NCBI GenBank assembly: GCA_034006035.1
Contig: JAVETN010000009.1
Location: 1-64,000, forward strand
Source: Desulforegulaceae bacterium
GTDB taxonomy: Bacteria > Desulfobacterota > Desulfobacteria > Desulfobacterales > JACKCP01
Length of the DNA stretch: 64,000 bases
Direction: 5' to 3'
Below are positions 19,217-42,496 of this stretch, piece by piece. How positions within the stretch are numbered: position 1 is the stretch's first letter; each line of letters opens with the position of its first letter. A program made the position numbers and the translations under genes. The notes beneath the pieces are model-generated. The model was not told where the DNA came from. It searched no databases and was given only the letters and a program-made list of their open reading frames with translations.

Positions 19217-20731
19217 TTAATTTTCTCCTTCATGAATCAGCACAATTTCAGCTTCTCTTTCCCGCTGATTTTCAACTAAGGCTCTATTCAGATAAACTTT
19301 TGGATTTAAATATCGATCTGTAATCAACTCTTCTCCAAAAGAATGTATTTTTCATCCTAAGTATAGAGATCTTTTACTAAAACTAGTGATTGTTTAAAGC
19401 TAGTTGAAATTTGATAAAAAAAGTTATGTACTAAGACTTCACCCATTTCAGAAATTGGAGCATCAGCTATTATTGGGTAAGAACTTTGTTTGTCCATTTT
19501 TAAAATTCCCATAACAATAGCAAATTGTCATTCTTTAAAAAGCTGCACCCTGCCCTGATAACAATCCGCCTTTATTATTAAGCAACTCAGACAAAAAAAT
19601 GATAATTATCATTAACATACACGGAAACAACACCTGGATTTATTTCATTACCTCTTGTCAATGATTGGTAAATATTGTTTATATTTTCTCAAATTGTTCA
19701 GAAAATTCTTCTACATTCACTTTCATATTTTTATATTCTTCAGCTTTTTTTTCTTTTAACTCTTTAATTGTTTCAGCTTTAGGAATATTTGGATGAACAT
19801 TTAAACAAATCATCAATAAAAGACCTGATTACTGAAACCTTTTGTTTTTTATTTTTAATACTCAAATTATTATCGTAAAATTTTCTTATATGATTGTATT
19901 TCTGTGAGTTTTTTAACATCTCTTCCACAAACTAAACATTTATTTTTATCTAACATGAGTTTGAGTGAACTGATATCAGGGGTTCCTTGTGGCAAAATGT
20001 TTTTTACATAACTATCATCAATTATTTTTTCTTCATGAACACATTGCTGATAATCATCTCTAAGCTCATTAAAAATATTTATTTTTTCATCAAAACCTTC
20101 TAAAATCCATTTATTTGTAAAGAAATGTTATTATAGAACTTTTCAAAGTTTTTTACTTTATTAGTTACCTCTTCTAGCTTTTGCTCAACTTTAATCCTTT
20201 TTATCAAATTTTCATTTTGTTTATTGTATTCAAACAATTTAGATTCAAGAAGATTTAATTTGTTATTTTTTTCTTCTTCGTCTTCTTTATAATTTTTAAC
20301 TTCTTTAGTCGATTTTTCAATTACCAATTTAAGATCATTAATCGAATTTGAAAGAATCTCAGCTTTTTCTTTGTTTTTTGCATTCTTTTTCAAATTCATA
20401 TTTTTTTTATTTTATATTCTGTTGGCCCGTAATTAGGCTTATCTAAATCAGTCATAAAACAAAGCTCTAAACTTGTTTCTATGACATCCCCTAACTTTGC
20501 TTTATCTGAAATTAATCTAGAAATATCTTTATTATGTTCTAATAATTGCTAAATCCTTAAATCAGAATCAAAAATTTTATTAGAAACTGTCCAAAGAAAG
20601 GTATTATATAATTTGAATTTACCACCATTATTATCAATAACTACAATATTAATTCCTTCTTTAAAATCAAAGGCTTTCTCAACGAATTAATGATAAAAAC
20701 TTTTAATTTTCACATATTTTATAAAAGACAT
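19217..20731 (-). pseudogene. Decayed SMC/Rad50-like (DndD-like) ATPase
   Basis: The ATG (20731-20729) overlaps the stop of the 1433-aa ATPase gene (TAATG). The frame reads MSFIKYVKIKSFYH, a TAA stop, then FVEKAFDFKEGINIVVIDNN. The expected Walker A glycine-lysine pattern is corrupted to NNGGKFKL. After further stops comes a coiled coil (20399-20100), then a zinc hook with CLVCGRD (near 19930), a second coiled-coil stretch in another frame, a degraded signature region, and a Walker B/D-loop-like YPIIADAPIS (near 19475). It ends EIVLIHEGEN at 19217. At least four stops or shifts make it non-functional. The architecture is that of SMC-like ATPases such as DndD or Rad50. Confidence 0.8.
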
Positions 20732-23700
20732 TACTTAATTCCAATCCTTTCAAAAAAAACAAATTTTAGTTTTTCAGGTAATTCTTTAAATCGCTGGACT
20801 AACCATTCTAATTCAAGAGCATTGCATCTTTGTTCAGCTTTATTTGAAATTTGATCCACAACTTTTAATTCATCTTTCGACAAAAGAGGTGATGGCACAG
20901 AAAGTTCTTTTAAGACACGATTCGATTCTTCAACACTCATTTTTGAGATTTCTTCTTCTTTATCAAGATAATCAACTAGCCATTCTTTTGCTTTAATTTT
21001 CCTTTTTTCAGAAATAACATTTGATATAATATCAATAGTTTTTTCAAAATCCCATGGTGGAAGTTCATTATCACCATATTCTATTTCAATGTTATTTTTA
21101 ATTTCACTGATTAAATCAGTATATTTATCCCATTTCAGATCAAAATTATTAAGCTGATTATAAGATTTTTTTAAAAGACCCAAAGCTTTGTTCATTAAGT
21201 AAAAATCCTCTAAATCACTATCAACGCCCTCATATATTGTGATGCATTCATTAACTAAATTTACAAGGTTATCAATATCATCAATGTTATTTATCTGAGA
21301 ATCCCAGAGATTATTTGCTTTTTCAGCAAGCTCAGTTTCTCTTTGATTAATTTTTTTAATAAAACCTGACAAATCAGACCTTATATTATCCAACTTCTCA
21401 AGCTTAACTTTTTTACTTATAGACTGGAGGTTTTTATTAAATTCTTTAGCAGCACCACTGATGGTTTTTAAGTCATTTATTTTTGCAATATTTGAAATTT
21501 TTGAATTTTCAATCATAAAAGAATTTACTGAATCAATCAACCTCCTAGCTTCAGCATTGTCTCTTGAGTGTTTTAACTGCACTTCAACATGTTCTCTTAA
21601 TTTTAAAGCTAAGTCATCTAATTCTAATAATTTCAGCCTTCCATATAATTTTCTGCCTAAATGGTTGTTAAATCTTGATACATCTTCAGGCTCATCTGAT
21701 AAAAGTATTTGACTCGAAATCCATCTATTAAAATTTTCAATAATTATCTGTCTGCCTTTTCCAACATCTATTTCAACATTTTTTATTTCAGTATCAAGCC
21801 ACATGCCATCTGAAATCATGGAATTAAGTTGTTCCTTAAGCATTCCAACTTGCCAGCAAGCATTGTCAATTTGATTTATCTTTATTGATTTTTCTATTTC
21901 AACCCATGCATAATTTATTTCATTATTAATTTTTTCAATAATTTCTTTTGATTTTTTAGCATCTTCTTTTAAACTTTTATATTGATAGACTAAAATAGAT
22001 GGAGTACTTATGTTTTTTTCTAATAAAAAAGCTCTATTGTAAAAATCAATTTTTTCCTGATGTTTTTCAGCTTCTCCCCATTCCTCTAAAAGTTCTTCCC
22101 ACTCAGAAGAAGTTTCACCAATCTTGATTATTTCTGTTTTACCAAGCTTATTCATGTCAAGACATTTGTTTGAAAACAAATCGTTTTCATTTTGAATCCA
22201 CTGATAAATATCTACCTGGCTCCCGTTTTCTTTTATAATTCTAATTTTATCGGTTCTATTACATAAAAAAACACCTAAAAGAACTCCGGCAGAAACAATA
22301 TTTGCTCCATAAGGCGGTCTGCAAATTGAAATTAATTCATCAGATACAATAAAAGGCTCTTCATCAGACTCAAGTTTGTTTTTCCAATTTTGAACTATAG
22401 TTCCGGCAGTTTTATTTTTAGGAATTATTATTTTACCATTGCTTTTACTAAAACAGTCCCAATAATTTTTTAAAAAAGGTAAAATTCTATTTTTATCTGT
22501 AGTACTTTTAGCTGAGCAATAATCAAAAGTTACTTTTCCTGCTAATAATTCCATAGTCAATTCATGACATGTTTTTGCAGCTCCCCCTCTTAAAGTAGCA
22601 AAGCCGTCAAACTTAAAAGACAGAGCTTTTGGATAAATATTTGTAAAAATTTCAGTGCATAAAGGACCAATTCTTCGAGAATTAAGTTCTTCTTTAAATC
22701 CGGTAACATATTCTCTTGATTTGATAGCTGCTTCAATTAAGTCTTTTAATTTATTTTTATTTTTTTCTTCATGCGCTCCAATTAAATGACCAAACTTTAC
22801 TTTCTCATCAGGTGTAATAGAATTTGATAATACGGAAAGTTCAGCCATTATTTTACCAATTTCATCATTGTTGTCATTTAATAAAACAATTAATACTGGT
22901 AAATTTTTTTGTCCCATTTCTTTTGCATTACTTCTAATTAAACGAGTTTTTTCAATCTTTATTTTTTCAAGATCTTCATCAGAGCTAACATAATAATAAA
23001 TTATGGAGCCTCTTTTATCTTCGACACCTAAAGAATTAATCCAATTATCAGCTTCTAATTTTAGCTTAATATCAATATTTGAAGTATTTGCAGTAAGAGC
23101 TTTAAAACCCCATTCTTTAGTTGTAATATTATTTGATTCTGCAAAATCACATGTAATTTCCTGAATTAAATCAGGACACCATTTTGTAATATTAGTGATG
23201 AAAAGTTCAGACTTGTCTCTTTGGTCAAAACTGCTTGAAACCCTTTGCCTTAAAAAAGAAATAAATTGTGTTTTAGGAACTGCGTCCCCTAAGATATCAT
23301 AAACCTTAAAATTATTGTCCCATTCAATAATATTATACTCTTCATGCAGATCTAAAAGCACTTGTTTGACAATTTTGATGTCTAATCCAGATAGATATGA
23401 AAAAGCTTCAATGTTTTTTTCTTTATCAGAAACAGATAAGCCAACTTTAGATGCTAAAACAATGGATTGAAGAATTTTTGTATGTTCTATTTTTAGTTTA
23501 TTTGCATGTTTATTAATTACAGTTGAATATGAATGAGCTATTGTACCCTGCTGTGAGCTTTGTTCGGAATTTATAAATTCATCAAGTAAATTTTGAGACC
23601 ATAAATCAACTGGATTTAATTCAACAGAAATTCCTTTTGAATCTAATTCAATTTCACTGAATTTTTCAATTGTCTGAGAAAGAAGTGAAATTGCAGACCT

Positions 23701-25032
23701 TTCCTGCAAATGCTTACCAGCAGCAGACAGATAATATAAAACCCAGATAGAAAAAGGAGAAAAAGGCCAGCATCCTTTTCTTATAACACCATGAAATTTT
23801 TCATCATTAGACCATAAACTCTGTTTAGCTGACAAAGGAAACCAGTCATTGAGAAGATACATCAGCTGTTTTGATTTATTAATACTTTCATCATTATCAA
23901 ACCAGATATCAATATCTTTAGTTTTCTTTTCAATCAAATTTGCAATAAGGGTTTCAAGATTTGTACTTAAATATGATTTTGCAGAATTTTGATATCTTGT
24001 AATAACCCTTGTAATATCATTTTTAAACTCAGGTGCTATTCTCTGAATATATGCGGTTAATTCAAATTGAATAAAACCAACAAAGGTTGTTTTTTCAGCA
24101 TTGCTTTGTATTCCTTCAAATAATTGCTGCAAAACGCCGCTTCCAGCAATTTGCCTTGATAAAGTAGCAAATTCTGCATATCTTCCAAATTCATCAAAAA
24201 GGATAAGTATACTGGAAAAAGGTTTATCTGAATCCTCACCACAATAATTTTGAGCAGTAACATCAAAGATATCTTTTAATGATTCACCACCATGAATTGA
24301 AATTTTAAGGCCGCTATTATCAAATAATTCTGCTAAAATTTCATAAATTTTTTCATTTTGATTTTGAAGAGCTTCAATAACAGCATCATAATTTGAAAGC
24401 TGAGTTCTTTCCAATATCTCGTCTAAATGTTCTTTATCAAGGGACATCAACTCAACTCTTTTAACTGCTTCTTTAAAACGGGGTCTTAAAGTTTCCAAAG
24501 GGGTTGGATCTGCATTTGATTTTTTGACTTGATTCATTACCTGCCTGCTTATTTCAGCAGTTAAATCATAATTTTCCATACCATTTAGAGATAAAACAAG
24601 AGCAGGTTTCATCATATTTTTTAAGTAATTTTCTATTTCCTTACCTAAAAATTCATCTGCCTGAATCAGAGATGCTAAAATAGATTTATATGAGTCACTT
24701 CCAAAATTTACAAATAATTCAGCCAGGGTAATTGCAAGATGAGATTTTCCTGTTCCATATCCTGCAATTGCAAGATTAAAGGGAGTATCAGAAAGGCCAG
24801 AACAATTTTTAACAATAGAGTGAGTAAAAGAAACTGTATCCTGAAGACTGTGACCGTCAGAAAAGCCTACGCTGTCTTTTAAAACACCATGATAATCAGG
24901 ACCATGAAAAACAAAAGATACAGCCGCTTTGTTTGCAAGTTCAGGATTTTTTATTAACCAATCAAGACTTACTGCACCTTCAAAAATTTTTTCATTTTTA
25001 AATCTTACAACATCAGATAATTTAAAAGACAT
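20731..25032 (-). CDS. Large P-loop ATPase, second DUF4007-partner (BrxC/DUF499-like style)
   Basis: This 1433-aa protein has a Walker A AGYGTGKSHLA at about residues 88-98 and a Walker B SILILFDEFGRYAEF at about 273-287. That gives a large AAA/STAND-like NTPase module resembling the giant ATPases of BREX (BrxC/PglY) and DUF499 proteins in general style. The C-terminal 450 residues are rich in charged heptads, suggesting coiled coils. AAGGAG lies eight bases before the start. The gene follows a DUF4007-like gene by 17 bases and is coupled by TAATG to the decayed SMC-like gene. By analogy it would be a nucleotide-driven core or remodelling factor of a defence complex. Exact family is uncertain. 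Confidence 0.75.
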   Translation of the reverse strand: MSFKLSDVVRFKNEKIFEGAVSLDWLIKNPELANKAAVSFVFHGPDYHGVLKDSVGFSDGHSLQDTVSFTHSIVKNCSGLSDTPFNLAIAGYGTGKSHLAITLAELFVNFGSDSYKSILASLIQADEFLGKEIENYLKNMMKPALVLSLNGMENYDLTAEISRQVMNQVKKSNADPTPLETLRPRFKEAVKRVELMSLDKEHLDEILERTQLSNYDAVIEALQNQNEKIYEILAELFDNSGLKISIHGGESLKDIFDVTAQNYCGEDSDKPFSSILILFDEFGRYAEFATLSRQIAGSGVLQQLFEGIQSNAEKTTFVGFIQFELTAYIQRIAPEFKNDITRVITRYQNSAKSYLSTNLETLIANLIEKKTKDIDIWFDNDESINKSKQLMYLLNDWFPLSAKQSLWSNDEKFHGVIRKGCWPFSPFSIWVLYYLSAAGKHLQERSAISLLSQTIEKFSEIELDSKGISVELNPVDLWSQNLLDEFINSEQSSQQGTIAHSYSTVINKHANKLKIEHTKILQSIVLASKVGLSVSDKEKNIEAFSYLSGLDIKIVKQVLLDLHEEYNIIEWDNNFKVYDILGDAVPKTQFISFLRQRVSSSFDQRDKSELFITNITKWCPDLIQEITCDFAESNNITTKEWGFKALTANTSNIDIKLKLEADNWINSLGVEDKRGSIIYYYVSSDEDLEKIKIEKTRLIRSNAKEMGQKNLPVLIVLLNDNNDEIGKIMAELSVLSNSITPDEKVKFGHLIGAHEEKNKNKLKDLIEAAIKSREYVTGFKEELNSRRIGPLCTEIFTNIYPKALSFKFDGFATLRGGAAKTCHELTMELLAGKVTFDYCSAKSTTDKNRILPFLKNYWDCFSKSNGKIIIPKNKTAGTIVQNWKNKLESDEEPFIVSDELISICRPPYGANIVSAGVLLGVFLCNRTDKIRIIKENGSQVDIYQWIQNENDLFSNKCLDMNKLGKTEIIKIGETSSEWEELLEEWGEAEKHQEKIDFYNRAFLLEKNISTPSILVYQYKSLKEDAKKSKEIIEKINNEINYAWVEIEKSIKINQIDNACWQVGMLKEQLNSMISDGMWLDTEIKNVEIDVGKGRQIIIENFNRWISSQILLSDEPEDVSRFNNHLGRKLYGRLKLLELDDLALKLREHVEVQLKHSRDNAEARRLIDSVNSFMIENSKISNIAKINDLKTISGAAKEFNKNLQSISKKVKLEKLDNIRSDLSGFIKKINQRETELAEKANNLWDSQINNIDDIDNLVNLVNECITIYEGVDSDLEDFYLMNKALGLLKKSYNQLNNFDLKWDKYTDLISEIKNNIEIEYGDNELPPWDFEKTIDIISNVISEKRKIKAKEWLVDYLDKEEEISKMSVEESNRVLKELSVPSPLLSKDELKVVDQISNKAEQRCNALELEWLVQRFKELPEKLKFVFFERIGIK

Positions 25033-25049
25033 AAACTAACTCCTTTATA

Positions 25050-25904
25050 TTAAATCAAATCATCATAAGTTTTTTTCCATAAATTTTGGCTTGATTCTAT
25101 CGGTTGAATAACCCAGGGTTCCATATGACGATCAACATTTAAAATTTTTTTCTGCTCAAAAAAAAACAAAATTTTATGAAAGTCGCTGATATCCCAGCCT
25201 GGTATGGTTTTACATCCAATAGCTCGTTCTAGTTCTGTTAAAGTAATTTGATTGTTATCAGGATAAAAAATTTCAATTAAATTCAAAATCCATGCACCAT
25301 ATCCCCAAATATTTTCATCTGTTACTGGTGCAGATTTTCTCTCGTAGTTTTCGCCTCTTGCAACTAATGCTGAACAAGCTGAAAAAGATGCAGGATCATT
25401 ATACATTCTCACTAAAGGTCCAATAATTGATGTGTTTTGAACCTCATAAATATTTTCAAGGTAATTAAGAAGAATTTTTCTATTAAAAGACATTCCAAGG
25501 GTAAAAAAACCTTTAAAAAAAACCTGATACCATACATCAGCCCCAATATTTGGACTGCATAAATTAAAATGGCAAATCCATTGAGTAATATTTTCTTTTA
25601 AAAAAGGGTCTTCAAATAAAACAACTCTTCCAAAATCTGTTAAAACAGGTTGTTTTACAGAATTATTTTTTGATTCATCCGAAAGTTCAATCAAACCCAT
25701 TCCTCTGCAATAATCAAGAGTAGGTACTACCTTACCACTGGATTTACCTGTTGGTATCCCTGTATCTTGCCCTATTTCAACAAAACTCCCTTTTTTACCT
25801 ATTGAAGCATATTTAAGCATTGCGTTTATATGCGTTCTTTCAGGCACAAAAGTTTTATGAAAATTTCTTGAAAGCCTTGTGTTTATATTTTTTGAACTAA
25901 CCAT
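25050..25904 (-). CDS. DUF4007-like protein (second copy)
   Basis: The 284-aa protein begins with a region containing FHKTFVPERTHI, then IGQDTGIPTGKSSGKVVPTLDYC and RGMGLIEL, a winged-helix-like pattern I associate with DUF4007-type proteins of defence islands. It is a distant counterpart of the 310-aa protein at the head of the operon. Each is followed by a giant ATPase, so the operon has two DUF4007-ATPase pairs. Its start overlaps the upstream stop (TAATG). DUF4007 has no established biochemical function; DNA binding is inferred from the winged-helix-like pattern. Confidence 0.65.
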   Translation of the reverse strand: MVSSKNINTRLSRNFHKTFVPERTHINAMLKYASIGKKGSFVEIGQDTGIPTGKSSGKVVPTLDYCRGMGLIELSDESKNNSVKQPVLTDFGRVVLFEDPFLKENITQWICHFNLCSPNIGADVWYQVFFKGFFTLGMSFNRKILLNYLENIYEVQNTSIIGPLVRMYNDPASFSACSALVARGENYERKSAPVTDENIWGYGAWILNLIEIFYPDNNQITLTELERAIGCKTIPGWDISDFHKILFFFEQKKILNVDRHMEPWVIQPIESSQNLWKKTYDDLI

Positions 25905-28900
25905 TAAAATCCTCTTTGCTTCATAGAAGTAACAGATATTTTGAATACTTTTGATACTAGCTGGTTATCATCATTTAAAGATGGCCCAAGTGAATAACAC
26001 TCTCCTTTTTTCAGTTGCGATAATTTGCTAGTCCAAAATTTTGCAGGCTCACTTGTGGCATTTTCCAAAAGTTTAGAATATTCACTAATCTCTGTATCAG
26101 CAGGTTTAAAAAACAATTTATGTCCAGCCTGAAAAAGCCTGCTTCTTTCTTCAGCAGAAAGATTGCTTAAAGTTTGAGTTGCCAAGATAAGAGAAATTCC
26201 AAATTTTCTTCCTTCAGTTAAATATTTTGCAAGGGGGAATTCTTCACGATGGTTTAAATTTTGAACTTCATCCAGCACAATAACTTTTGGATTATTTTTA
26301 TTTCCTGTACCACGTACAAATGCATAAAAATCCCATAGCAAAAATTCTGTAACAAGCTTCCACGAATGAAGATCCATCCCGGCAAGCTGAAAAATATTAC
26401 ATAGCTGGTTTTTCTTTTCAAACAAATGATCCCAGCTGATTCCAGAAAATTCAGACGAAAAAGGATTGTCAAGAATAAATGGTTTTATTTTACTTATTAA
26501 ACTTAATACAGAATTTTTTTGCTTAATTTTATCTTCTAAATAATCCTTTAAAATTTCTAAAAGATTGTCTAAATTAAAACTATTTCCATATGTTAAAATC
26601 CCATCACTTATTGCATCAAGTAAAACACTGTACTGCTGATCTCCAAAATTATAAACAGAATCAAAAATTGAAGTTATTCTTTTAGATGCTGTACCTATTT
26701 TTTCAGGCATAGCCTCACCATCAAGAATGGGAGCATGAATTTTAAAAGGACTAATTGGCAAAGGTTCCTTCATTATATAATGCTGTTTTGGTTCTAAAAA
26801 TTTTTTTGTTTCTTTTTCTAAATGCTCTGGCAAAAACCCATTTGTATAATCTATAACCAATGAATTTTGATTGTTTTTCCCAAATTCATTTAAAAAACAT
26901 TGGATAGCATATGTTTTACCCATACCCGAACTGCCAAAAATAAGCATATGCCTATTACTTAAATCTTCATTACCATACTCCCAATACACATCCCTGCTGC
27001 CATTTACCGAAGTACCAAGAAATATTCGCTCTGGTATTTTGGGTTCAAAAACATTAGAATTATTTTTTCCTTCAAACTCTCTATAATTTACTAATGAATC
27101 TATGTTTTTATTAGTTTCTCTTCGAACTCTTTCCAACTTTCCGGAACTTTCAATATCAGGAATGTTTTCTTCTTCAATATTGAGTTCATGCTTTTCATCA
27201 TTCCCATAAGATTCAAATTCCTCTGATTCTGATTCCTGTCTGATAAATTTTGTAAAATCAAAATTAAACTCAAAGCTCATATTATTATCAAAACATAATT
27301 TTCTTAATGCATAACTTCCTGCATTAATTTCACTAATTTTTATTGTTTTTCCTTCAAAATAATAATTCCAGCTTTCCTTTTCGCAAATAACATCAGTTTT
27401 ATTTCCTGATGAACAAGTAAGAATTGAACCCCCCCATGATATTTCGAACTCACCTTCAGCTAATTTTTCAAAAGCTTCTAAAACATTTTTTCTTTTCTTT
27501 TTTTTAACCTGAGTTTTACTTGCAATAAGTCTGTGAAGCTGAAGCCACCAATATCTTGCATCTGGTCTTTGTAATAAATAATTATTTTCATTATTTTTTA
27601 CAAAAGGCATAAAAGCAGGAATTAGAGTATCAAGGCCGTTTATAATTTGTTCAAAGGCTTTATCTAAGTAACCATCTGTATTTTCAGCAAATTTACATTC
27701 AATAATCATTGCAGAAATTGAAAACAAACCAGATTCATTAATATCTGCATTTAACAGCAAAATATCAGGCCTTATATTTGACTCTGCTGCTTCAAACCAA
27801 TGCCTGTAAGCATCTAAAGAAATAAATTTGCTGCATAAAATGTTTTCTGAAAAATTATAAATTTTACATGCATATGCATAGGCCAGTAAATTTCTGATTT
27901 CCTGGCTTAAACCTGTTGATTTTATTAAGGATAAACCAGAAAAATTTTCAGATTGCTTTATTGCAAACTCAGCTGCTTTTTCATAATCATCATGTTCCCA
28001 GCCAGACATTATATTTGAAATTGAAGCTCTTAATTTTTTTTTTAAGTCAGTTAATTTAAACTGCTCTGTAGATATTGTGTAATTTGCTTCTCCATGTGAG
28101 CCAACGCCTGAACCAAAACCAATTATTTTTCGAGAATTTTTTTCAAGATCATCTTGAAGAAGTCTTTCATCAATATTTGAATCTATACATACAACCCATT
28201 CTGCTTTTTTGTGTAAAGCATTTACAACTTCATTCCACGGTGAAAAATCTCCGCTTCCAATAGCAATATATGAAGTTTTTTTCATATTTTTCATACTTGC
28301 CATAATTCCAAGATGTTTTGTTGAAATTGTGAATTGTCTGTTGCTGATTACTCTTTCTCTTGTATCAGAGTTTCTTTTTTCAGTTGAAGAGCAAAATATT
28401 TTTTCAAGGATAGGATATTTCAAAGGTCTTGATGTTACATCAAAACTATCAACTTCTTCAAATCTGTTCTCATTTGATGTGCCTATAAAATTTGATAGAA
28501 TTATGATATCACAATCAAAATTTTCATTTATAATTTTTTTGAATTGTTCATAATTATTATCTGATTTCACAATTCTGTGCGATAATTTTAAATTACAATT
28601 TCTATAATGTGCCAGACTTTCTTCTACTTCAGATACTTCCCACCTCTCTCTCCACTCTTCAATCCAGTTTGAAAGAGCTCTATCATCTGCAGTTTCAGAA
28701 AAAATTGTGATATTTAAATTATAATTCAAAGAAATATTGTTACTTTTTTCTTTCATAAACTTATCAATTGCAGCAATTAAAGGCTGAATATCTAAATTTT
28801 GAAATACAGAAATATTTAAACCATCGTTTGCATGGGGATAAAGCTCTAAAAAATCAGTAATAATTCTATATATAAGCTTTGATTCTCTTGTTTCTTTAAA

Positions 28901-35800: not shown

Positions 35801-37321
35801 TTCAGAACTAGCTATTTGATAGGAAAGATCAAAATTCATAAGTTTTGGTATATCATCATTTATTATAAGAATATTATCTGGCGATAAATTTCTATGAACA
35901 ACGCCTTTATCATGAACTGCTTTTAAACCAGACAAAATGCCATATGTTATTTTAAGAGCTTTATTTGTTTTAATAGGTGTTTTTTTTTCAATATAAGACT
36001 GTAAGTCGCCTTGGTTTGACCAATCACTGCTTTCAATAAGATAACCATAATCATTTGGGATATCAGTAACTTTTAAAATATTAGGATGATCACCTATTTC
36101 TTCTACTGTTTTTAAAGTTCTCTCAGGATCTCTAAACCTTGATTTGTCGTATATAACTCTTAATTTTCTTAAGTTTTTACTATTTTCTCTTTTTGCAATT
36201 AATTCTTCATAATTTTCATCCTGATAAATTTTCTCAACAATTTTTAAACCATTAAACTTAATTGATTCAGGTTTTTTAGGTTCATTTAAGGAATTAATGT
36301 AATCGCATATTTTTTTTGCTTGAGCTTTTTCAATTATATTTCCATTTATTTCTGACTGATTTTCTAAATAGGAGATAAAATCTTTTATATTTCTAAAACT
36401 AGGCTGACTTTTTGTTGTTTTTGGATCAGATGCTCCTTCAATTTCACATTCATCATGAGTAAAAACAACTACTGATTCAACAAAAGGAAGATTTAAATAA
36501 GGAAATTTTTTTTCGCATTCTCCTTTTATCAATTTAGCTTTAAAGCTGTTTGGCTGATGAACATCTTTTCTATAGCCCCCATTAAAAACCCAATCGTAGG
36601 GCTTGATTTCCACCTTACCTTTCCAATGCTTAAGTTCAACAACATAAAGCCCATATGGGGCTACAATTAAAAGATCAATTTCAAAATATCTATTAGAATG
36701 ATAATTATAAATATTAATATTTGTGGAGACATAGCCTAAGTTTTTAGGTTTAATAATTAACTCAATTTTATCTAAAGCTTTTTGTTCATGTGGGAATAAA
36801 GATGAGTTTAAAAACTGTTTATTCGCATCATATAAAAAATCACTGCTACTTATTTCCTTTATTTTTTTTTCTAAATAATTCTTTATTCTAACTCTGCAAA
36901 AATCATCAGAAAATCCTTTGTGCACAATATCTTCCAAATATGCGAACTTTACTGTTTCCAGCAATTTTTTTTTGGTTAATCTTTTACCTGATTTAGAATA
37001 ATTTTTATATTTAATTTCTTTCCCTTCATTAATTTTAAAACTCCAAATATTAGAGTTTTTCAGATAAAAAAAAGGATATTCTATAACTATTTTATCAACT
37101 GATGTTTCAGGCATAAATTTAAGCCAAATTTTAACAAAAAAATCTTCCAATTCTTTATTTAAATAAAATTTATTATCTCTATTGTTTTTGATATTATAAA
37201 GTTCTACTAGAGTTAATAAAAAAAAATATTTATGTGGCGAGATATCTGGCCCTTTTTTATTAACATTAATTTTTTTAATATTTTCTATAATCTGATCACA
37301 TAAACTTTTAAGTAAACTCAT
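32810..37321 (-). CDS. NERD nuclease - pseudokinase - protein kinase - NTPase fusion (PglW-like, DptF-like C-terminus)
   Basis: The 1503-aa protein has at least four modules. A NERD nuclease-like domain holds EIDLLIVAPYGLYVVELKHW (about residues 212-231), giving the D...ExK pattern. A first Ser/Thr-kinase fold (about 350-600) has VVHRNLSPDN where HRD is expected and NFD in place of DFG, so it looks catalytically dead. A second kinase (about 640-890) keeps HNDIKPEN and IIDFGIS and looks active. The C-terminal NTPase begins GHAGDGKTTIA (about 975-990) and carries CPLWKKCEDCNDNKKCP (about 1125-1141), a possible metal site. NERD plus kinase recalls PglW of the Pgl/BREX system; the C-terminus recalls DptF. 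It could sense or signal by phosphorylation. Confidence 0.78.
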   Translation of the reverse strand: MSLLKSLCDQIIENIKKINVNKKGPDISPHKYFFLLTLVELYNIKNNRDNKFYLNKELEDFFVKIWLKFMPETSVDKIVIEYPFFYLKNSNIWSFKINEGKEIKYKNYSKSGKRLTKKKLLETVKFAYLEDIVHKGFSDDFCRVRIKNYLEKKIKEISSSDFLYDANKQFLNSSLFPHEQKALDKIELIIKPKNLGYVSTNINIYNYHSNRYFEIDLLIVAPYGLYVVELKHWKGKVEIKPYDWVFNGGYRKDVHQPNSFKAKLIKGECEKKFPYLNLPFVESVVVFTHDECEIEGASDPKTTKSQPSFRNIKDFISYLENQSEINGNIIEKAQAKKICDYINSLNEPKKPESIKFNGLKIVEKIYQDENYEELIAKRENSKNLRKLRVIYDKSRFRDPERTLKTVEEIGDHPNILKVTDIPNDYGYLIESSDWSNQGDLQSYIEKKTPIKTNKALKITYGILSGLKAVHDKGVVHRNLSPDNILIINDDIPKLMNFDLSYQIASSEFTVIPEPSKLKKSPFIAPEIYEGESAESSDFFSVGVILYYMLTKEYPFNSYKDLKLNNGNLSDSCIKKINSLNLAKEIKNLLLKLLKYDFNKRPQTVDEIIEILENYKNKTISFENKLLKPDENHDLYCIVENLKKEKGEAQLYKSKGALGEDYLLKIFNFDTDLKKIQSEKDFSTYVTHNTLVKCENFFKWSDKRPVLAFKWIEGSNLREIMKFGLPELDFFKKTAFSLISGIEALHTYEEFEILHNDIKPENIIITNDKRPKIIDFGISSRNKIDIYSGTEGYIAPDLVIDSQREYCVSGDLFALGVTLFEWFFGIKPYKNFVVGEKIADIDFIIPNLNPKLKIWFLKSVDTKAENRFLSCFEMKNELTSCFSKNEIQVNKVEQHTNDTNIIAKETNNINLEKIKTDDFEDKSPNPFVAYLNTLNNINSNSSNMLAESQACNEYFKYIHVEHDLKAIIKKELFENKRHVILTGHAGDGKTTIALELFKDLRGIPLDEHLFEEMKRIEYIKDKNIKIIKDFSEWKAEDWVEILNSASDKNSPKMLLISNTGTLLNAFKFLNKEKNNDWLCYENKLLESFSKSEPYTFIHDNTEYCVINLAMYDNLPVAKKIFEKTINCPLWKKCEDCNDNKKCPVFKNYSLIKNSSLAVERIFYIYQRMFEYGYRFTLRQIVSHLSYIITSGMNYLDIVNYSSKNHVLISELLFFNRFFGDNGAKEDEKAQQIKVIKCLKNSDIGEEINSFWDRKLWVREDEIKFDSDFDKESIQFNYLRSIGKSNNKNELEPVFARKQIRRILYFFYHFPEYTKNKDENPFVSNFLKSPMLLSFLKWKKNRTLENIEKESLKNKILHVLQEFFTGNRLPEKKSFTGNLYITLSRQTRNIRQSSQIVLADFRAKDFDLAIENEKLFFRFSEKEDILLNLELPFLDYVMNRHYGDIGQTLDLGYNDRLESFKSQLISLKKNKNQKQLILLNLKTDHNFKEYKIHFNKEKLEVINNA

Positions 37322-37328
37322 TCAAACC

Positions 37329-38123
37329 TCACCTAAATATAATGTTATTGATATCTTGTGAATTATCTAATATAGAGGATAACGTCTCAGAAAGTAGATT
37401 TTTGTTTTTTCCGTTAAAACAGCTTTCATGCTCGTAATTATTTAAATCAGTTTTTTTTAATTTTTTTAGAAACCCTTTTTCTCTCCATGTATACTTTCTG
37501 TTATCAGAATGATTTTCTTCATATTCACAAGCTTTATTAAAAAGGGTTCTGTGTTTCTTTTTTAAACCAAGCCATTCGCTATCTTTTTGATAAAAACAAA
37601 AAAAACAGCCGGATCTTTTTCTCCACGAATAATAACCTGGTAAACCTAATCCACTATCTCCTAGAATTTTTATAATTTCTTCTAGTCCATGACCGTCTTC
37701 TACAAATGGGTATTTTGGGAAAAAATTACTTTGCTCTCTAAAACCTTCTCTGTCTTCATCAGCTCTTATTCCTACATAATTATATACAATTTGATCTTTA
37801 CAATTATTTTTTAGCCATTTGTCATAAGGCTTAAGCTTAAGCAACCTTGTACACCACCTATTATTGGGTGAAGGTAAAACTCCATTAAAATATTTAAGCC
37901 AATAATCAAAATCTTTTTCAGGCCTAATTGTAATAATTTTTATATTTAACAACGCTCTTATTTTTTTTAAATACAAATAAGTTTCAGGAAGTTCATGTCC
38001 ACTATCAGTGAAAACATACTCCAAATCAAGCTCAGGATGTTTTTCTTTCATATAAACTGCTAAAGCAGCACTATCCTTTCCCCCTGATAATCCAAGAATG
38101 TGGCGTTCTTTTTTTTTATTCAT
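37329..38123 (-). CDS. PAPS reductase-family PP-loop protein (DndC-like / BrxP-like)
   Basis: The 264-aa protein has the PP-loop ATP-pyrophosphatase motif SGGKDS at residues 14-19, FTDSGHELPETY, the cysteine in NNRWCTRLLK (about residue 90), VGIRADE, and a CFFC pair (about 171-174) in KRSGCFFCFYQK. These are features of phosphoadenosine-phosphosulfate-reductase-like enzymes including DndC, which activates DNA for sulfur insertion and carries an iron-sulfur cluster. It is much shorter than classical DndC (about 500 aa), so it holds only the core domain. It overlaps the upstream ATPase gene by eight bases. In BREX type 4 a PAPS-reductase-like protein (BrxP) also occurs. No cysteine desulfurase is encoded nearby. 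Confidence 0.82.
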   Translation of the reverse strand: MNKKKERHILGLSGGKDSAALAVYMKEKHPELDLEYVFTDSGHELPETYLYLKKIRALLNIKIITIRPEKDFDYWLKYFNGVLPSPNNRWCTRLLKLKPYDKWLKNNCKDQIVYNYVGIRADEDREGFREQSNFFPKYPFVEDGHGLEEIIKILGDSGLGLPGYYSWRKRSGCFFCFYQKDSEWLGLKKKHRTLFNKACEYEENHSDNRKYTWREKGFLKKLKKTDLNNYEHESCFNGKNKNLLSETLSSILDNSQDINNIIFR

Positions 38124-41100
38124 TTTTCAAAATCCTGTCTTCTATTAAAAATGCAATAAGCTTTTCAATATCAGAAAGTTCAAGCTTATTTATTCCAGAA
38201 AAATTTTCTTGAACTTTTAATTTGTCTTTTTCGCTGAGATGAAAAACTTTTCTTATATTAGAACCGTTTTTTTGAGTTAAATTTAAAAGAAATTTATTTT
38301 CATCTTTTTTAAATTCAGATAAAAATGTATTAGACAAAAGCACTTCAAAATCTTTTATTCTATTAGAAATTTCTTCAAGATAAGCATAATAAACATCAAC
38401 ATCTCCGTCCCTCCAGGAATCAACAGGCTTTTCTACTATTAAACCAGAAACTCCCATTATCCATTTGTTAATATCGCCTTTGTCAGTGCAAATGGCTTTT
38501 AAAATTTGCTTAAGTTCTAAGTCTTTACATGGAGAAACAAGTTTTATGTATTTTTTATAAATATTATTCCTAAACTCATCAAAAGTTTCGCTGTCTTTTT
38601 TATCAAAACATTTACAAAAATGTTCCTTGATTTTGACTAATAAATTTTCAAAAGAAGTATTTAGTTCTAAAAGGCATGTTTGAAGATTTTCAAATATTTT
38701 TGTTTTAAAATCGTCGTTAATTTTTTCATTCTCAATTATTTCTATATTCAAAGCTTGAGGTATTTCTTTAAAAAGAAGTTCTAGAGGCTCTTTTGAATTC
38801 AAAAGAACAGACCTAAGCTTTTGAGCTTTTGTCGAAATTTTTCTTGTGTAAAGAGTGTAGTCAGGAAGTCTTTTTACAAACTCGACTAAAGGTGCAACAA
38901 TTTTTAGCAAAGATTTATTTCTTGTTGATGAGTTTAAATTTACCAAATCTGTATTTAAAACACTCATGTATGCCTGAACAATTTCCTTTTTAAAGCCAGT
39001 ATTTGTAATTTTTTTTATTGAAAAAAGATCAGGTCTTTTTAAAAGCAATGCAGCTTCAGCTTTATTAAATACAGGCTTAAAAATTCCTTCTTGATATAAA
39101 GCGATTTCGTCATTATTTACTAAAATATAATGACACAAAAACAAAGGAATAACCCCTTTTCTCAGACCATAAGGTCTTTTCTGAAAAACTTTTATTAATT
39201 CAGAAATTAAAACCGGTGAATTGTTTTTTTCTGCCTTTTCCATTGTTGAATTGATTTTATCCCAAACACAGGCTAATTTTTTTTGTTTTTCATCTTTTTT
39301 CTCAGGTTTTACAAATTGCCAAAAACTTTGTTCTTTTTTAATTTTTTTATGAAGTCCAAGGGATTTAAACATTGCCCTGTAAAATGCAACTTCAGGACCA
39401 AAGCCTTCCATATCCAAATTATCAATATGCTCTTTTGTCACCATTGCTTCTATCAGCTCTCTTTGTGCTCTTGCTGCAGAAGGTGATAATTTATTATGAT
39501 TTATCATTTCCATATGAACTTCAGGACAAATGGAATAAACTTCATCGCAAACTTCAGAAACAAATGAAGATATTTTAAATCTCGAATTGTTTAACTTTTC
39601 TTCCCCCAAAGCAAACCATTGTACTTTTTTATTACCTGAATTTAAAAGTTCATTTATAAGTTTTTGTAAATTATTATGGGAAGTTTCAACCCTAAACCGA
39701 ACTTCTCTTCTTGCCACACCATCATTAAAAAGCTGTGGGTTTGTTTCAAGAACTTTTTTAGAAGCTGCTGCTTCTAATGCAAGTTCTTTTATTAAAGCTT
39801 CAAAAGGGAGAAAACCTATTATAATGGGATGTTCTTTTGTTATTTTCTTTAAATAATCTTTTTCATCATTATCTTTTCCAACAACTAAAAAAATATGACC
39901 ATCAAACTTTAAGTTATCAAAATTTGATTCTTCAAGTTTTTTTATATCTCCAATTTCTGACCATGACTGTGAAAATTCCCTGATTATTCCTTTTTGATAA
40001 GAATGCCTTGAAGCTATAATGTTTTGTCTTTTTAAATTTAAATTTAATAACTCCGATAAATTTAAAACTGCAAGCCTACTTTTCTCAGCAATAACAGCTT
40101 TTTCAATATCAAAATCTGTGCCTTCCCAAAGCCTAAATTCATCAGAATAACTTCTATATAAAAGTGCTCCACTTGAAATAAGGTTATCAAGAGATTTGTC
40201 TATCTTTATTTTTAGTTGTCTGTCTTCTGATTCAAAACAAGCATAAATTAAATTTTTAGATGCTTTAATTCCTAAATAACCAAGTAAATTTAAAACTCCA
40301 ATTGTTTTTAATAATTTTATTTCCAAAGGACTACTAGCATTAAAGGAGTTTATAATATTTTTAATTTCTATCCATTTTTGAGTTGTAGCTCTGTTATTAT
40401 GAAACTGAGTTGTTTCCTCACAGAAATAGTTGTAGAGCCAATCAAGGCCTAAGGGCTCAAACTTTTTTTTTTCATCCAGTTTAGATATCTCAAGGTATTT
40501 TTTTAAAGCTCTTGGATTCCCGCTGGAAATAAAAGAAAAAATTGTTCTTTGATTTTGAGCAAAAGTTTTACTTAATTCGCCTAAAACTATGCCAAAAATA
40601 GGGTTTATAGGAAAAATTTTCCATAAATCTTTATGATTTAACTCAGGAATATTTGGAATATTTAAATCATTTATTAAATTAGCGTTTTTCTTACACCAAC
40701 TATCAATTAATTTAGAAATTTTACTATCTATCTTCTCCTCATCTATATTTACTGATTTAGATATTAAGCTTAATACCCTTCCAGGAGGTTCTACATAAGA
40801 AATGTCTTCAAAACGACCTTGAACTTTCCCCCATTCATTTAACTGAATATTAGATAAATTTGATGCATAGTCATTAAAGGATTGATGAAGACACACAAAG
40901 ACATAACAATTTTGACTTTCTGCTAAGCATTGTAACGCAAAAACATCCCCTTTACCTGGATTATGGGACATAAACTCAAGATTTTTACCAAACTCATCAA
41001 TCACAATAAGAAAAGGCCGTTTCAGAGCAGATGATATTTTATCAATAGAATCTACAATTAATGAAGTTTCAAAAGAATCTTGATTTAATAAGTTTTCAAT

Positions 41101-41559
41101 CTCAGTTGTTAATTCTTCTAATTTTTTATCGTTTATATTTTTTAAAGTTGACAATAAAGCTCTTAATAAAGATTTATTCAAAGGTTCATATTGTGATAAA
41201 GCTCTGACATTAATAAAATTTTCAATATTTATTTTATCCAGGCTCTTTTCCAATCTGACTTTAAATTTTTTATCAGTTTTATTAAGGCTATTCCAAGCAG
41301 TTGATTTGACTTTTTTATCTTCTGAAAATAAAGAAAAGAGGTAATTGCAAAAAGCTGATTTACCGCTTCCATAAGGCCCGGTTAAAGACCAAGCTGAAAT
41401 TGGTTCCCCCTCTAACGAATCAGCAAATCTGCTAAGAACATCTAGAACAACAGGAGTTAACTGAAATCTTTTTATCTGGTCTAAATCAGAAGCATCTCTT
41501 TCAATATTGACTGATCTTGCAACCTTAGAGTCTATTTTTATAAATTCATTTAAAAACAA
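38116..41559 (-). CDS. Large P-loop ATPase, first DUF4007-partner
   Basis: The 1147-aa protein begins with a P-loop ATPase module: Walker A GPYGSGKSAF at about residues 60-69 and Walker B PFLIVIDEFGKNLEF at about 181-195, then a sensor-like VFVCLHQSF. The rest (about 400-1147) is mixed helical with no recognised domain. The start lies four bases after the DUF4007 stop, so translation is coupled. The DEFGK/DEFGR Walker B signature is shared with the 1433-aa ATPase of this operon, suggesting two distant paralogues. A role in DNA recognition or complex assembly is inferred by analogy with BREX and Dpt ATPases. Confidence 0.72.
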   Translation of the reverse strand: MFLNEFIKIDSKVARSVNIERDASDLDQIKRFQLTPVVLDVLSRFADSLEGEPISAWSLTGPYGSGKSAFCNYLFSLFSEDKKVKSTAWNSLNKTDKKFKVRLEKSLDKINIENFINVRALSQYEPLNKSLLRALLSTLKNINDKKLEELTTEIENLLNQDSFETSLIVDSIDKISSALKRPFLIVIDEFGKNLEFMSHNPGKGDVFALQCLAESQNCYVFVCLHQSFNDYASNLSNIQLNEWGKVQGRFEDISYVEPPGRVLSLISKSVNIDEEKIDSKISKLIDSWCKKNANLINDLNIPNIPELNHKDLWKIFPINPIFGIVLGELSKTFAQNQRTIFSFISSGNPRALKKYLEISKLDEKKKFEPLGLDWLYNYFCEETTQFHNNRATTQKWIEIKNIINSFNASSPLEIKLLKTIGVLNLLGYLGIKASKNLIYACFESEDRQLKIKIDKSLDNLISSGALLYRSYSDEFRLWEGTDFDIEKAVIAEKSRLAVLNLSELLNLNLKRQNIIASRHSYQKGIIREFSQSWSEIGDIKKLEESNFDNLKFDGHIFLVVGKDNDEKDYLKKITKEHPIIIGFLPFEALIKELALEAAASKKVLETNPQLFNDGVARREVRFRVETSHNNLQKLINELLNSGNKKVQWFALGEEKLNNSRFKISSFVSEVCDEVYSICPEVHMEMINHNKLSPSAARAQRELIEAMVTKEHIDNLDMEGFGPEVAFYRAMFKSLGLHKKIKKEQSFWQFVKPEKKDEKQKKLACVWDKINSTMEKAEKNNSPVLISELIKVFQKRPYGLRKGVIPLFLCHYILVNNDEIALYQEGIFKPVFNKAEAALLLKRPDLFSIKKITNTGFKKEIVQAYMSVLNTDLVNLNSSTRNKSLLKIVAPLVEFVKRLPDYTLYTRKISTKAQKLRSVLLNSKEPLELLFKEIPQALNIEIIENEKINDDFKTKIFENLQTCLLELNTSFENLLVKIKEHFCKCFDKKDSETFDEFRNNIYKKYIKLVSPCKDLELKQILKAICTDKGDINKWIMGVSGLIVEKPVDSWRDGDVDVYYAYLEEISNRIKDFEVLLSNTFLSEFKKDENKFLLNLTQKNGSNIRKVFHLSEKDKLKVQENFSGINKLELSDIEKLIAFLIEDRILKNE

Positions 41560-41563
41560 TTCT

Positions 41564-42496
41564 TTATTCCCTATTATAATACTTTTCTAAAATTTCCCAA
41601 TACAACTCAATAGGCTCTTGAGAAAAATGTAATTGTTGAGTTCCTGATGATTCAACAAAATTTATATTATCAATTTTTGAGACCGCATCTTCTATTAATG
41701 TACCGCATTCTGTTTCGGTTAATTTAAAAGCAATACCAGGTGAATCTTGGCCATATACAATTTTGTTTAAACTAAATGTTTTCTCTTTTAACCCTAATTT
41801 GTTGGCATACGAGCAGCATGTAGCTAGAAAGATTAAAGGATGCAATGAGTTTTTTTTCTCGAAATTAAATTTAAAATGTGAGCTTTCTGTTGTCTTTTCT
41901 ATCAAGTTCAAATTAGTAAATGGACATTTGATTCCAAAGTCAGAGTTAATATTAGGCACATACATTTGAATTATGCAATTTGCATCTTTTTCAAAAGATT
42001 TTGAAGAAATTTTACTTAACTTTTCATTACCTTTCGCAAAATTGACAATGTTTTTTGACAAATCCTGTCTTGTAAATTTTTGAAGTGAACAATAGTTAAA
42101 AAACAAAACCCATGAAACAGCTGATAGTGGATTTAAAAAAATTTGCCAATGAAGAAGCCAGAGGCTTGCATCATCTTCTAAAAAAGGGTCAAATCCGCTG
42201 CTCCAATCGAACTCAGAATTATTTGGATTAATTTTGCCAATAAGCATTTCTCCAAATTTTGTCGAAATAAGCTCAGTTTTATTTTTTTCTAAAAGACCAA
42301 ACAGTATGCACCAATATCTAATGGATCTTACCATATTTTTACCTACTCCAAGTACTTCAACAGCGTTTTCTACCTTAAAGACATCAGGGTCTTCTAAAGC
42401 TTTTACATATCCTTTTGTAAGCCAACCATATCTTGGAACAAAAGTTTCATGCCTTCCAGCCGAGCCATTGGAATACTGTTCTAAATTTATTAACAT
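41564..42496 (-). CDS. DUF4007 family protein, first gene of the operon
   Basis: The 310-aa protein begins with RHETFVPRYGWLTKGYVKAL (residues 15-34) and continues VEVLGVGKNMVRSIRYW, the defining block of DUF4007, found in defence islands next to PAPS-reductase and ATPase genes. No catalytic motif is visible; the GVGKNMV segment is not a P-loop. It is the first gene of an eight-gene operon. The ribosome-binding site is weak (GAAAGAC). Several inverted repeats lie in the upstream region, so the operon may be repressed when not needed. Confidence 0.75.
   Translation of the reverse strand: MLINLEQYSNGSAGRHETFVPRYGWLTKGYVKALEDPDVFKVENAVEVLGVGKNMVRSIRYWCILFGLLEKNKTELISTKFGEMLIGKINPNNSEFDWSSGFDPFLEDDASLWLLHWQIFLNPLSAVSWVLFFNYCSLQKFTRQDLSKNIVNFAKGNEKLSKISSKSFEKDANCIIQMYVPNINSDFGIKCPFTNLNLIEKTTESSHFKFNFEKKNSLHPLIFLATCCSYANKLGLKEKTFSLNKIVYGQDSPGIAFKLTETECGTLIEDAVSKIDNINFVESSGTQQLHFSQEPIELYWEILEKYYNRE

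What the first reader, a model, noticed from the sequence alone, without database searches (positions are those of the whole stretch)
20731..42496. A 22-kb eight-gene operon that looks like an undescribed phosphorothioation/BREX-like defence system
Seen directly: eight minus-strand genes with gaps or overlaps of at most about 17 bases. They encode DUF4007, P-loop ATPase, PP-loop PAPS-reductase-like enzyme, NERD-kinase-kinase-NTPase, unknown 544-aa protein, HerA-like motor with ExK motif, DUF4007-like protein and a second P-loop ATPase. Known: PAPS-reductase-like enzymes occur in Dnd and BREX type 4, NERD kinases in Pgl (PglW), HerA motors in DptH. Inference: the set is one hybrid antiviral system. 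DndB, PglZ, a DNA methyltransferase and a cysteine desulfurase are absent, so it is not a standard version of those systems as I know them.
Basis: partly seen in the sequence, partly recalled or inferred. Interest (0 to 1): 0.88.

Follow-up and report, generated by a model that had tools for sequence, protein, structure and literature searches.

The report
Ssp phosphorothioation defence with duplicated SspBC pair
This eight-gene operon is a version of a known antiviral system (Ssp) that swaps a sulfur atom into the cell's own DNA to mark it as self; this version adds a built-in sulfur-reading domain and a second DNA-recognition/ATPase pair that travels with the DNA-attacking half of the system in nearly every relative examined.

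Summary
In detail: eight same-strand ORFs at the stated coordinates, gaps/overlaps of 1-17 bp. The label "undescribed" is only partly right. Six genes are the known SspBCD (phosphorothioate, PT, modification) plus SspFGH (restriction) set, described in 2021; the "unknown 544-aa protein" is SspG, the HerA motor is SspH/DndH-like, and the NERD-kinase-kinase-NTPase is SspF with N-terminal fusions already reported for DndF. What I did not find described: (1) the last two genes are a second, anciently diverged SspB/SspC pair (B2C2). In 80 loci from many bacterial phyla the order F-G-H-B2-C2 is nearly invariant. B2C2 coevolves with G and H (r 0.80-0.84), not with B, C, D (r 0.34-0.44). Two canonical SspFGH loci lack it. 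Its nearest outside relatives sit in PT-type BREX. (2) SspF starts with a sulfur-binding domain (SBD; fold Z 18.2 to 8H0L) whose sulfur-pocket H, K/R and P are kept in 23 of 23. This predicts a restriction complex that reads PT directly. SspA is missing from the operon; a NifS elsewhere in the genome probably supplies sulfur. Verdict: new variant of a known kind, with a testable answer to how SspFGH tells self from non-self.

The parts
41564..42496 (-). sspB (310 aa, DUF4007): DNA-recognition subunit of the PT modification module
   Evidence: PADLOC SspB 4.5e-87; Pfam DUF4007 2.7e-79
38116..41559 (-). sspC (1147 aa): ORC/Cdc6-type AAA+ ATPase of the modification module, intact Walker A/B
   Evidence: PADLOC SspC 3.3e-287; GPYGSGKS and IVIDEFGK
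37329..38123 (-). sspD (264 aa): PP-loop PAPS-reductase-like sulfurtransferase
   Evidence: PADLOC SspD 1.3e-93; SGGKDS loop kept in relatives
32810..37321 (-). sspF (1503 aa): SBD - NERD nuclease - pseudokinase - active kinase - SspF core
36830..37306 (-). sulfur-binding domain of SspF (aa 6-164); pocket H30, K31, Y82, P83
   Evidence: PDB 8H0L 4.4e-12 by sequence; AlphaFold pLDDT 90.6, Z 18.2 to 8H0L and 13.4 to ScoMcrA SBD; H, K/R and P in 23/23
36458..36787 (-). NERD (PD-(D/E)XK) nuclease domain of SspF (aa 179-288), D...ExK intact
   Evidence: Pfam NERD 4e-13; motif
35447..36259 (-). first kinase domain of SspF (aa ~355-625), catalytic Asp lost (HRN, NFD): pseudokinase
   Evidence: Pfam Pkinase; motifs
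34652..35404 (-). second kinase domain of SspF (aa ~640-890), HND and DFG kept: probably active
32933..34552 (-). SspF/DndF core (aa ~924-1463): derived P-loop NTPase, Walker A GHAGDGKT, SNT at the Walker B position
   Evidence: PADLOC SspF 7e-27 and 5.8e-25; motifs
31183..32817 (-). sspG (544 aa)
   Evidence: PADLOC SspG 8.8e-21; conserved in relatives
25904..31183 (-). sspH (1759 aa), DndH-like
   Evidence: PADLOC DndH 1.5e-57, SspH 1.7e-20
27692..27772 (-). PD-(D/E)XK motif of SspH (RPD...ECK, aa 1138-1164)
   Evidence: kept in four distant relatives
26144..26965 (-). HerA/FtsK translocase domain of SspH (aa ~1407-1680)
   Evidence: Pfam DUF87 5.1e-10, TrwB 3.4e-11; GSSGMGKT and VIVLDEVQN
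25050..25904 (-). sspB2 (284 aa): second SspB paralogue, effector side
   Evidence: AlphaFold pLDDT 94.8; Z 20.7 over 270 residues to the SspB crystal structure, next unrelated 9.7
20731..25032 (-). sspC2 (1433 aa): second SspC paralogue, AAA+ with intact Walker A/B and a C-terminal extension, perhaps coiled coil
   Evidence: profile-profile to SspC 99.6%, E 1.5e-24 over 835 columns; own clade in the tree

Best explanation
The operon is a complete phosphorothioation-based restriction-modification system of the Ssp kind, in an extended subtype. Shown by sequence: a writing module SspB-SspC-SspD; a restriction module SspF-SspG-SspH; and a second SspB/SspC pair (B2C2) that belongs to the restriction module. 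Inferred from the families: SspD takes sulfur from a cysteine desulfurase in trans (NifS at G000:C4) and, with SspB (site recognition) and the SspC ring, places PT marks at a short motif in host DNA. SspH (PD-(D/E)XK nuclease plus HerA/FtsK motor) with SspG and SspF attacks DNA that lacks the marks. Proposed: the SBD of SspF docks on PT marks in host DNA and holds the complex off, while B2 (same fold as SspB) finds the unmarked sites and the C2 ring loads or activates SspH there. The NERD nuclease and kinase would be back-up or abortive effectors, as proposed for DndF. The identity of the parts and the module membership of B2C2 are well supported; the self/off polarity of PT reading and the loader role of B2C2 are hypotheses (roughly 0.6 and 0.45).
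For: Family models. Same eight-gene order in three distant genomes. 80 C2-anchored loci: B2 next to C2 in 76 of 77 with room (my count: one search prints 74, but its overlap rule missed L046 and L051, which one search shows with B2), H in 69 of 70, G in 45 of 47. A PT-writing module lies beside it in every locus whose upstream stretch was fetched. In a 395-genome sample of the window's phylum, the four genomes that score with this SspG profile are the same four that carry full-length C2 (one search's fifth, weak C2 hit G373 lies in a PglZ-BrxL locus). Distance-matrix correlation splits the operon into B/C/D (0.72-0.92) and G/H/B2/C2 (0.80-0.94), cross-block 0.34-0.51. SspC and SspC2 are separate supported groups. 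SBD by sequence, fold and pocket residues. B2 fold = SspB. Published: SspFGH damages non-PT DNA and is toxic without SspBCD (PMC8092258); the SBD pocket H116/R117/P165 binds PT sulfur (PMC6224610).
Against: No experiment. SspF lacks an SBD in 3 of 26 class-A systems and in all ten clostridial and the one gammaproteobacterial F whose start was read, so SBD reading is not universal. SBDs are otherwise known in PT-dependent (mark-attacking) nucleases, the opposite polarity. B2C2 could act in another step. Mirror-tree correlations are not corrected for shared ancestry or linked transfer.
Confidence: 0.75

Rival explanations
1. B2C2 is a second specificity unit for modification: it pairs with SspD to write PT at another motif, and only happens to lie at the end of the operon.
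For: B2 and C2 are true paralogues of SspB and SspC with the same fold and intact ATPase motifs. There is only one SspD per operon, so sharing it is conceivable.
Against: B2C2 follows SspH in nearly every locus and coevolves with G/H, not with B/C/D. In clostridia the writing module has a different, longer sulfurtransferase (BrxP-like in the one scanned) yet B2C2 stays with FGH.
Confidence: 0.12
2. PT-sensing activation, as in SspE: the SBD binds PT in host DNA and switches the complex on when infection supplies a second signal, so PT is an activator and not a brake.
For: SBDs known so far sit in PT-dependent nucleases (PMC6224610); SspE relies on PT in host DNA and DndI is called PT-sensing (abstract and title, PMC9646914, PMC11662687).
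Against: Tested SspFGH attacks non-PT DNA and is relieved by PT (PMC8092258). An SBD-activated nuclease encoded with its own PT writer would need another brake.
Confidence: 0.25
3. A stand-alone FGH-B2C2 'HerA/FtsK capture' defence that does not use PT, with SspBCD linked by chance.
For: DndFGH is often decoupled from DndABCDE, and HerA + ORC/Cdc6 + multi-wHTH gene sets are described as capture systems (PMC10853773).
Against: In every locus whose upstream stretch was fetched a PT writing module adjoins FGH-B2C2, and most class-A SspF carry a PT-reading SBD. L052, with no PAPS reductase hit in its genome, also lacks F and G.
Confidence: 0.06
4. A degenerate or inactive remnant, because SspA is missing.
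For: Many relatives have a cysteine desulfurase between D and F; the window has none.
Against: All ORFs are intact and catalytic motifs kept. A full-length NifS beside NifU is in the genome, and the tested FF-93 system was run with IscS (PMC8092258).
Confidence: 0.05

Closest known systems
SspABCD-SspFGH (Vibrio anguillarum FF-93; PMC8092258)
   Same: SspB, SspC, SspD writing module; SspF, SspG, SspH restriction module; cysteine desulfurase may be IscS
   Different: The published set is FGH only; two gammaproteobacterial loci of that type read here have no B2C2. The window's F carries SBD, NERD and kinases, and its SspH scores better to DndH than to SspH models
DndFGH/DptFGH with NERD-kinase DndF variants (PMC10853773)
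   Same: wHTH-NERD-inactive kinase-active kinase-DndF core architecture; DndH nuclease plus HerA
   Different: Paired with SspBCD, not DndBCDE; adds B2C2. The paper lists the N-terminal fusion as 'a wHTH' and elsewhere says the SBD is a wHTH; I found no text there calling the DndF domain an SBD
Type 4 BREX (PT-based; BrxP, BrxC, DUF4007, PglZ, BrxL; PMC12839542)
   Same: DUF4007 + BrxC/SspC + PAPS reductase chemistry; in Thermomicrobium and Pseudanabaena loci read here a second DUF4007/ATPase pair sits beside brxL (PglZ named in the first) and matches B2C2 best
   Different: No PglZ or BrxL in the window; the effector is FGH
PglW (Type 2 BREX) and MADS MAD6
   Same: NERD plus tandem kinase block
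   Different: No PglX/PglZ or MADS methyltransferase; here the block is fused to an SspF core

Membership tests
SspBCD PT modification module | SspB (DUF4007), SspC (AAA+), SspD (PP-loop) adjacent | tested here: met
   PADLOC 4.5e-87, 3.3e-287, 1.3e-93
SspBCD PT modification module | cysteine desulfurase SspA in the cluster | tested here: not met
   7-bp D/F gap, no such ORF; NifS in trans at G000:C4. Not treated as excluding: the tested FF-93 system was run with IscS (PMC8092258)
SspBCD PT modification module | PT in DNA (5'-CPSCA-3' in tested systems) | not testable with these tools
   needs LC-MS/MS
SspFGH restriction module | SspF core, SspG, SspH with nuclease and HerA motor | tested here: met
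   PADLOC SspF 7e-27, SspG 8.8e-21, DndH 1.5e-57 / SspH 1.7e-20; motifs
SspFGH restriction module | damage to non-PT DNA, relieved by PT | not testable with these tools
   shown for FF-93 (PMC8092258)
DndABCDE-DndFGH | DndB, DndD, DndE | tested here: not met
   no matches in Pfam, NCBIfam or PADLOC
BREX type 4 | PglZ and BrxL | tested here: not met
   no matches
BREX type 2 (Pgl) | PglX methyltransferase, PglZ | tested here: not met
   no matches; g5 matches PglW over residues 172-906 only
Sulfur-binding domain (SBD) | SBD fold with the H/K(R)/P sulfur pocket | tested here: met
Sulfur-binding domain (SBD) | binding of PT DNA | not testable with these tools
   needs EMSA

The most novel reading that the evidence does not exclude
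PT defence has a general two-machine design: one DUF4007/ORC-ATPase pair (SspB-SspC) writes the mark, and an ancient paralogous pair (B2-C2) serves the effector, whether FGH or PglZ-BrxL. In the FGH branch a sulfur-reading domain built into SspF lets the restriction complex read the backbone mark directly.
Probability: 0.45. Interest if true: 0.75.

Novelty: new variant of a known kind. Interest (0 to 1): 0.6.

Why it matters
How SspFGH and DndFGH complexes recognise PT-marked self DNA is not settled in the papers I read. This subtype carries a recognisable PT-reading domain inside the restriction complex and a dedicated recognition/ATPase pair on the effector side. Point mutations in three pocket residues and two gene deletions would test the question directly. 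It also adds two genes to the definition of a system found in many phyla; PADLOC's SspB and SspC models match the window's B2 and C2 only weakly (2.8e-7, 4e-8).

Tried and rejected
Standard Dnd, BREX type 2, BREX type 4 and MADS: core components absent. PbeABCD: unrelated parts (SF2-HKD, small protein, CxC ABC ATPase, DndE). Phage carriage: no C2 relative in viral contigs; plasmids hold only remote BREX-linked ones and DptH or HerA-domain hits. PDB sequence search with C2 gave only a weak hit to a SNARE construct, 0.0078, and none for B2. No text on 'SBDHga' is held. An alignment of SspC made with a wrong coordinate (A5) was discarded and redone (A6). Whether B2 keeps SspB's Mg2+/nickase residues could not be tested, as the residues are not given in the papers read. 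L169 is not the contig of locus L032 and was not used in the counts.
Full report
OBSERVATION. Eight minus-strand ORFs lie at the stated coordinates with junctions of +4, -8, +7, -8, -1, -1 and +17 bp. The operon is 26-32% G+C against mostly 29-39% around it, and sits between an SDH-alpha gene with small ORFs and a small ORF next to a T2SSF gene.

WHAT THE GENES ARE. In operon order: SspB (PADLOC 4.5e-87), SspC (3.3e-287), SspD (1.3e-93), a NERD-kinase-kinase protein whose residues 924-1463 are the SspF core (7e-27), SspG (8.8e-21), SspH/DndH (DndH 1.5e-57, SspH 1.7e-20), then a weakly scoring SspB (2.8e-7) and SspC (4e-8). So six genes form the SspBCD-SspFGH phosphorothioate system of Wang et al. 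2021 (PMC8092258), where SspBCD with IscS makes PT at 5'-CPSCA-3' and SspFGH damages non-PT DNA. [quoted passage not shown] In the window the first kinase has lost its catalytic Asp (HRN, NFD) and the second keeps HND and DFG.

THE SULFUR-BINDING DOMAIN. The N-terminal 180 residues of SspF hit the PT-bound sulfur-binding domain 8H0L at 4.4e-12 by sequence. The AlphaFold model of residues 1-176 (pLDDT 90.6) matches 8H0L at Z 18.2 over 150 residues and the ScoMcrA and SprMcrA SBDs at Z 12.7-13.4; the next unrelated chain scores 8.3. In ScoMcrA the sulfur pocket is H116, R117 (Lys in most homologues), Y164, P165 (PMC6224610). At these positions 23 of 23 SspF SBDs keep H and P, 22 keep K and one has R; the Y164 position, which contacts bases, varies. 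That pattern fits a working PT reader with varied motif specificity. Among class-A systems (SspD-type writer; neither clostridial nor gammaproteobacterial) whose SspF start I could read, 23 of 26 have the SBD; the exceptions are G132, L140 and L154. Fusions vary: SBD-F alone, SBD-NERD-kinase-kinase-F, and NERD-kinase-kinase-F.

THE SECOND PAIR. B2 models with pLDDT 94.8 and matches the SspB crystal structures at Z 20.7 over 270 residues, next unrelated 9.7. C2 aligns to SspC profile-to-profile at 99.6%, E 1.5e-24 over 835 columns, and keeps both Walker motifs. A tree of 39 sequences puts 20 SspC on one side of a branch (SH-aLRT 98) and 16 SspC2 on one side of another (99), so the duplication looks old. 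B2 and C2 are my labels; I found no published name for them.

CO-OCCURRENCE. Three genomes found in a phylum sample have the same eight genes in the same order (in one, G186, sspC is interrupted). A C2-anchored scan of one genome for each of 84,980 species gave 80 loci whose record titles include Desulfobacterota, Firmicutes, Chloroflexi, Bacteroidetes, Verrucomicrobia, Acidobacteria, Spirochaeta, Cloacimonadota and others (the scan keeps at most 80). B2 was counted next to C2 in 74 of 77 loci with room. Two of the three exceptions, L046 and L051, do have B2: their C2 start was called early and overlapped B2, so my count is 76 of 77. H lies upstream in 69 of 70, G in 45 of 47, F in 41 of 44 (F of L073 is in L152). 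Upstream of F lies B-C-D in the class-A loci read, often with a cysteine desulfurase between D and F; in ten clostridial loci the order is D-B-C followed by a ~385-aa gene, and in the one scanned with PADLOC D is BrxP (4.4e-80) and that gene SspA (1.1e-36); in two gammaproteobacteria B-C-D is on the other strand. In 395 genomes of the window's phylum, full-length C2 and this SspG occur in the same four genomes. Canonical SspFGH in two gammaproteobacteria (G683, G561) has no B2C2.

TWO MODULES. Pairwise distances across about 19 class-A systems correlate within B/C/D (0.72-0.92) and within G/H/B2/C2 (0.80-0.94) but only 0.34-0.51 between blocks. B2C2 therefore belongs to the restriction side. 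Outside FGH, the two C2 relatives in plasmids (Thermomicrobium roseum, Pseudanabaena galeata) sit in operons with their own B-C-D plus a second DUF4007, a second ATPase, brxL and a cysteine desulfurase (PglZ is named in the first; in the second that place holds a 'hypothetical protein'). Both second copies score higher to the B2/C2 models than to B/C, and both second ATPases branch next to SspC2 (100), though on long branches. This suggests a wider two-machine design, as a hypothesis from two loci.

SULFUR SUPPLY. The operon has no sspA. Among seven aminotransferase-V hits in the genome the best is a full NifS (TIGR03402, 605 bits, cut-off 531) beside NifU; the second is SerC.

MECHANISM. Shown: gene identities, intact motifs, module membership, SBD fold and pocket. 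Inferred from relatives: SspBCD writes PT; FGH attacks unmarked DNA. Hypothesis: the SBD reads PT and restrains the complex; B2C2 recognises sites and loads SspH; NERD and kinase are back-up effectors. The main rival is PT as activator.

LIMITS. No experiment. Novelty is judged against an open-access library without bioRxiv; a type-4 BREX preprint (Yuan et al. 2024) and the 2020 SspABCD-SspE paper could not be read.

Noticed in passing
L193:5206-20769 (Thermomicrobium roseum plasmid) and L194:3648-22242 (Pseudanabaena galeata pPg_05): PT-type BREX operons with two DUF4007/ATPase pairs: one beside the PAPS reductase, one beside brxL (and PglZ in the first). The second pair is closest to B2C2.
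   Followed up: partly
L182:6088-8673 (minus strand): A gammaproteobacterial SspBCD-FGH locus (G746) has an 862-aa protein after SspH in place of B2C2; from memory it looks like the 'DNA phosphorothioation-associated putative methyltransferase' annotated in L194.
   Followed up: no
L155-L164 (Clostridia): FGH-B2C2 linked to a ~580-aa PAPS reductase upstream of B and C; in L164 it is BrxP-like, so one restriction module is used with two kinds of PT writer.
   Followed up: partly
G296:C11:18252-18584: G296 (Desulforhabdus sp. TSK) has a second, divergent SspG besides the one in its eight-gene operon; possibly a second FGH system.
   Followed up: no
L052: Desulfobacter latus locus with H-B2-C2 but no F or G in the flank and no PAPS reductase hit in the genome; looks degraded.
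   Followed up: no
window:11776-16731: Futalosine-pathway menaquinone genes (two VitK2_biosynth, two CofH/MqnC-type radical SAM, an amidohydrolase) left of the operon.
   Followed up: no
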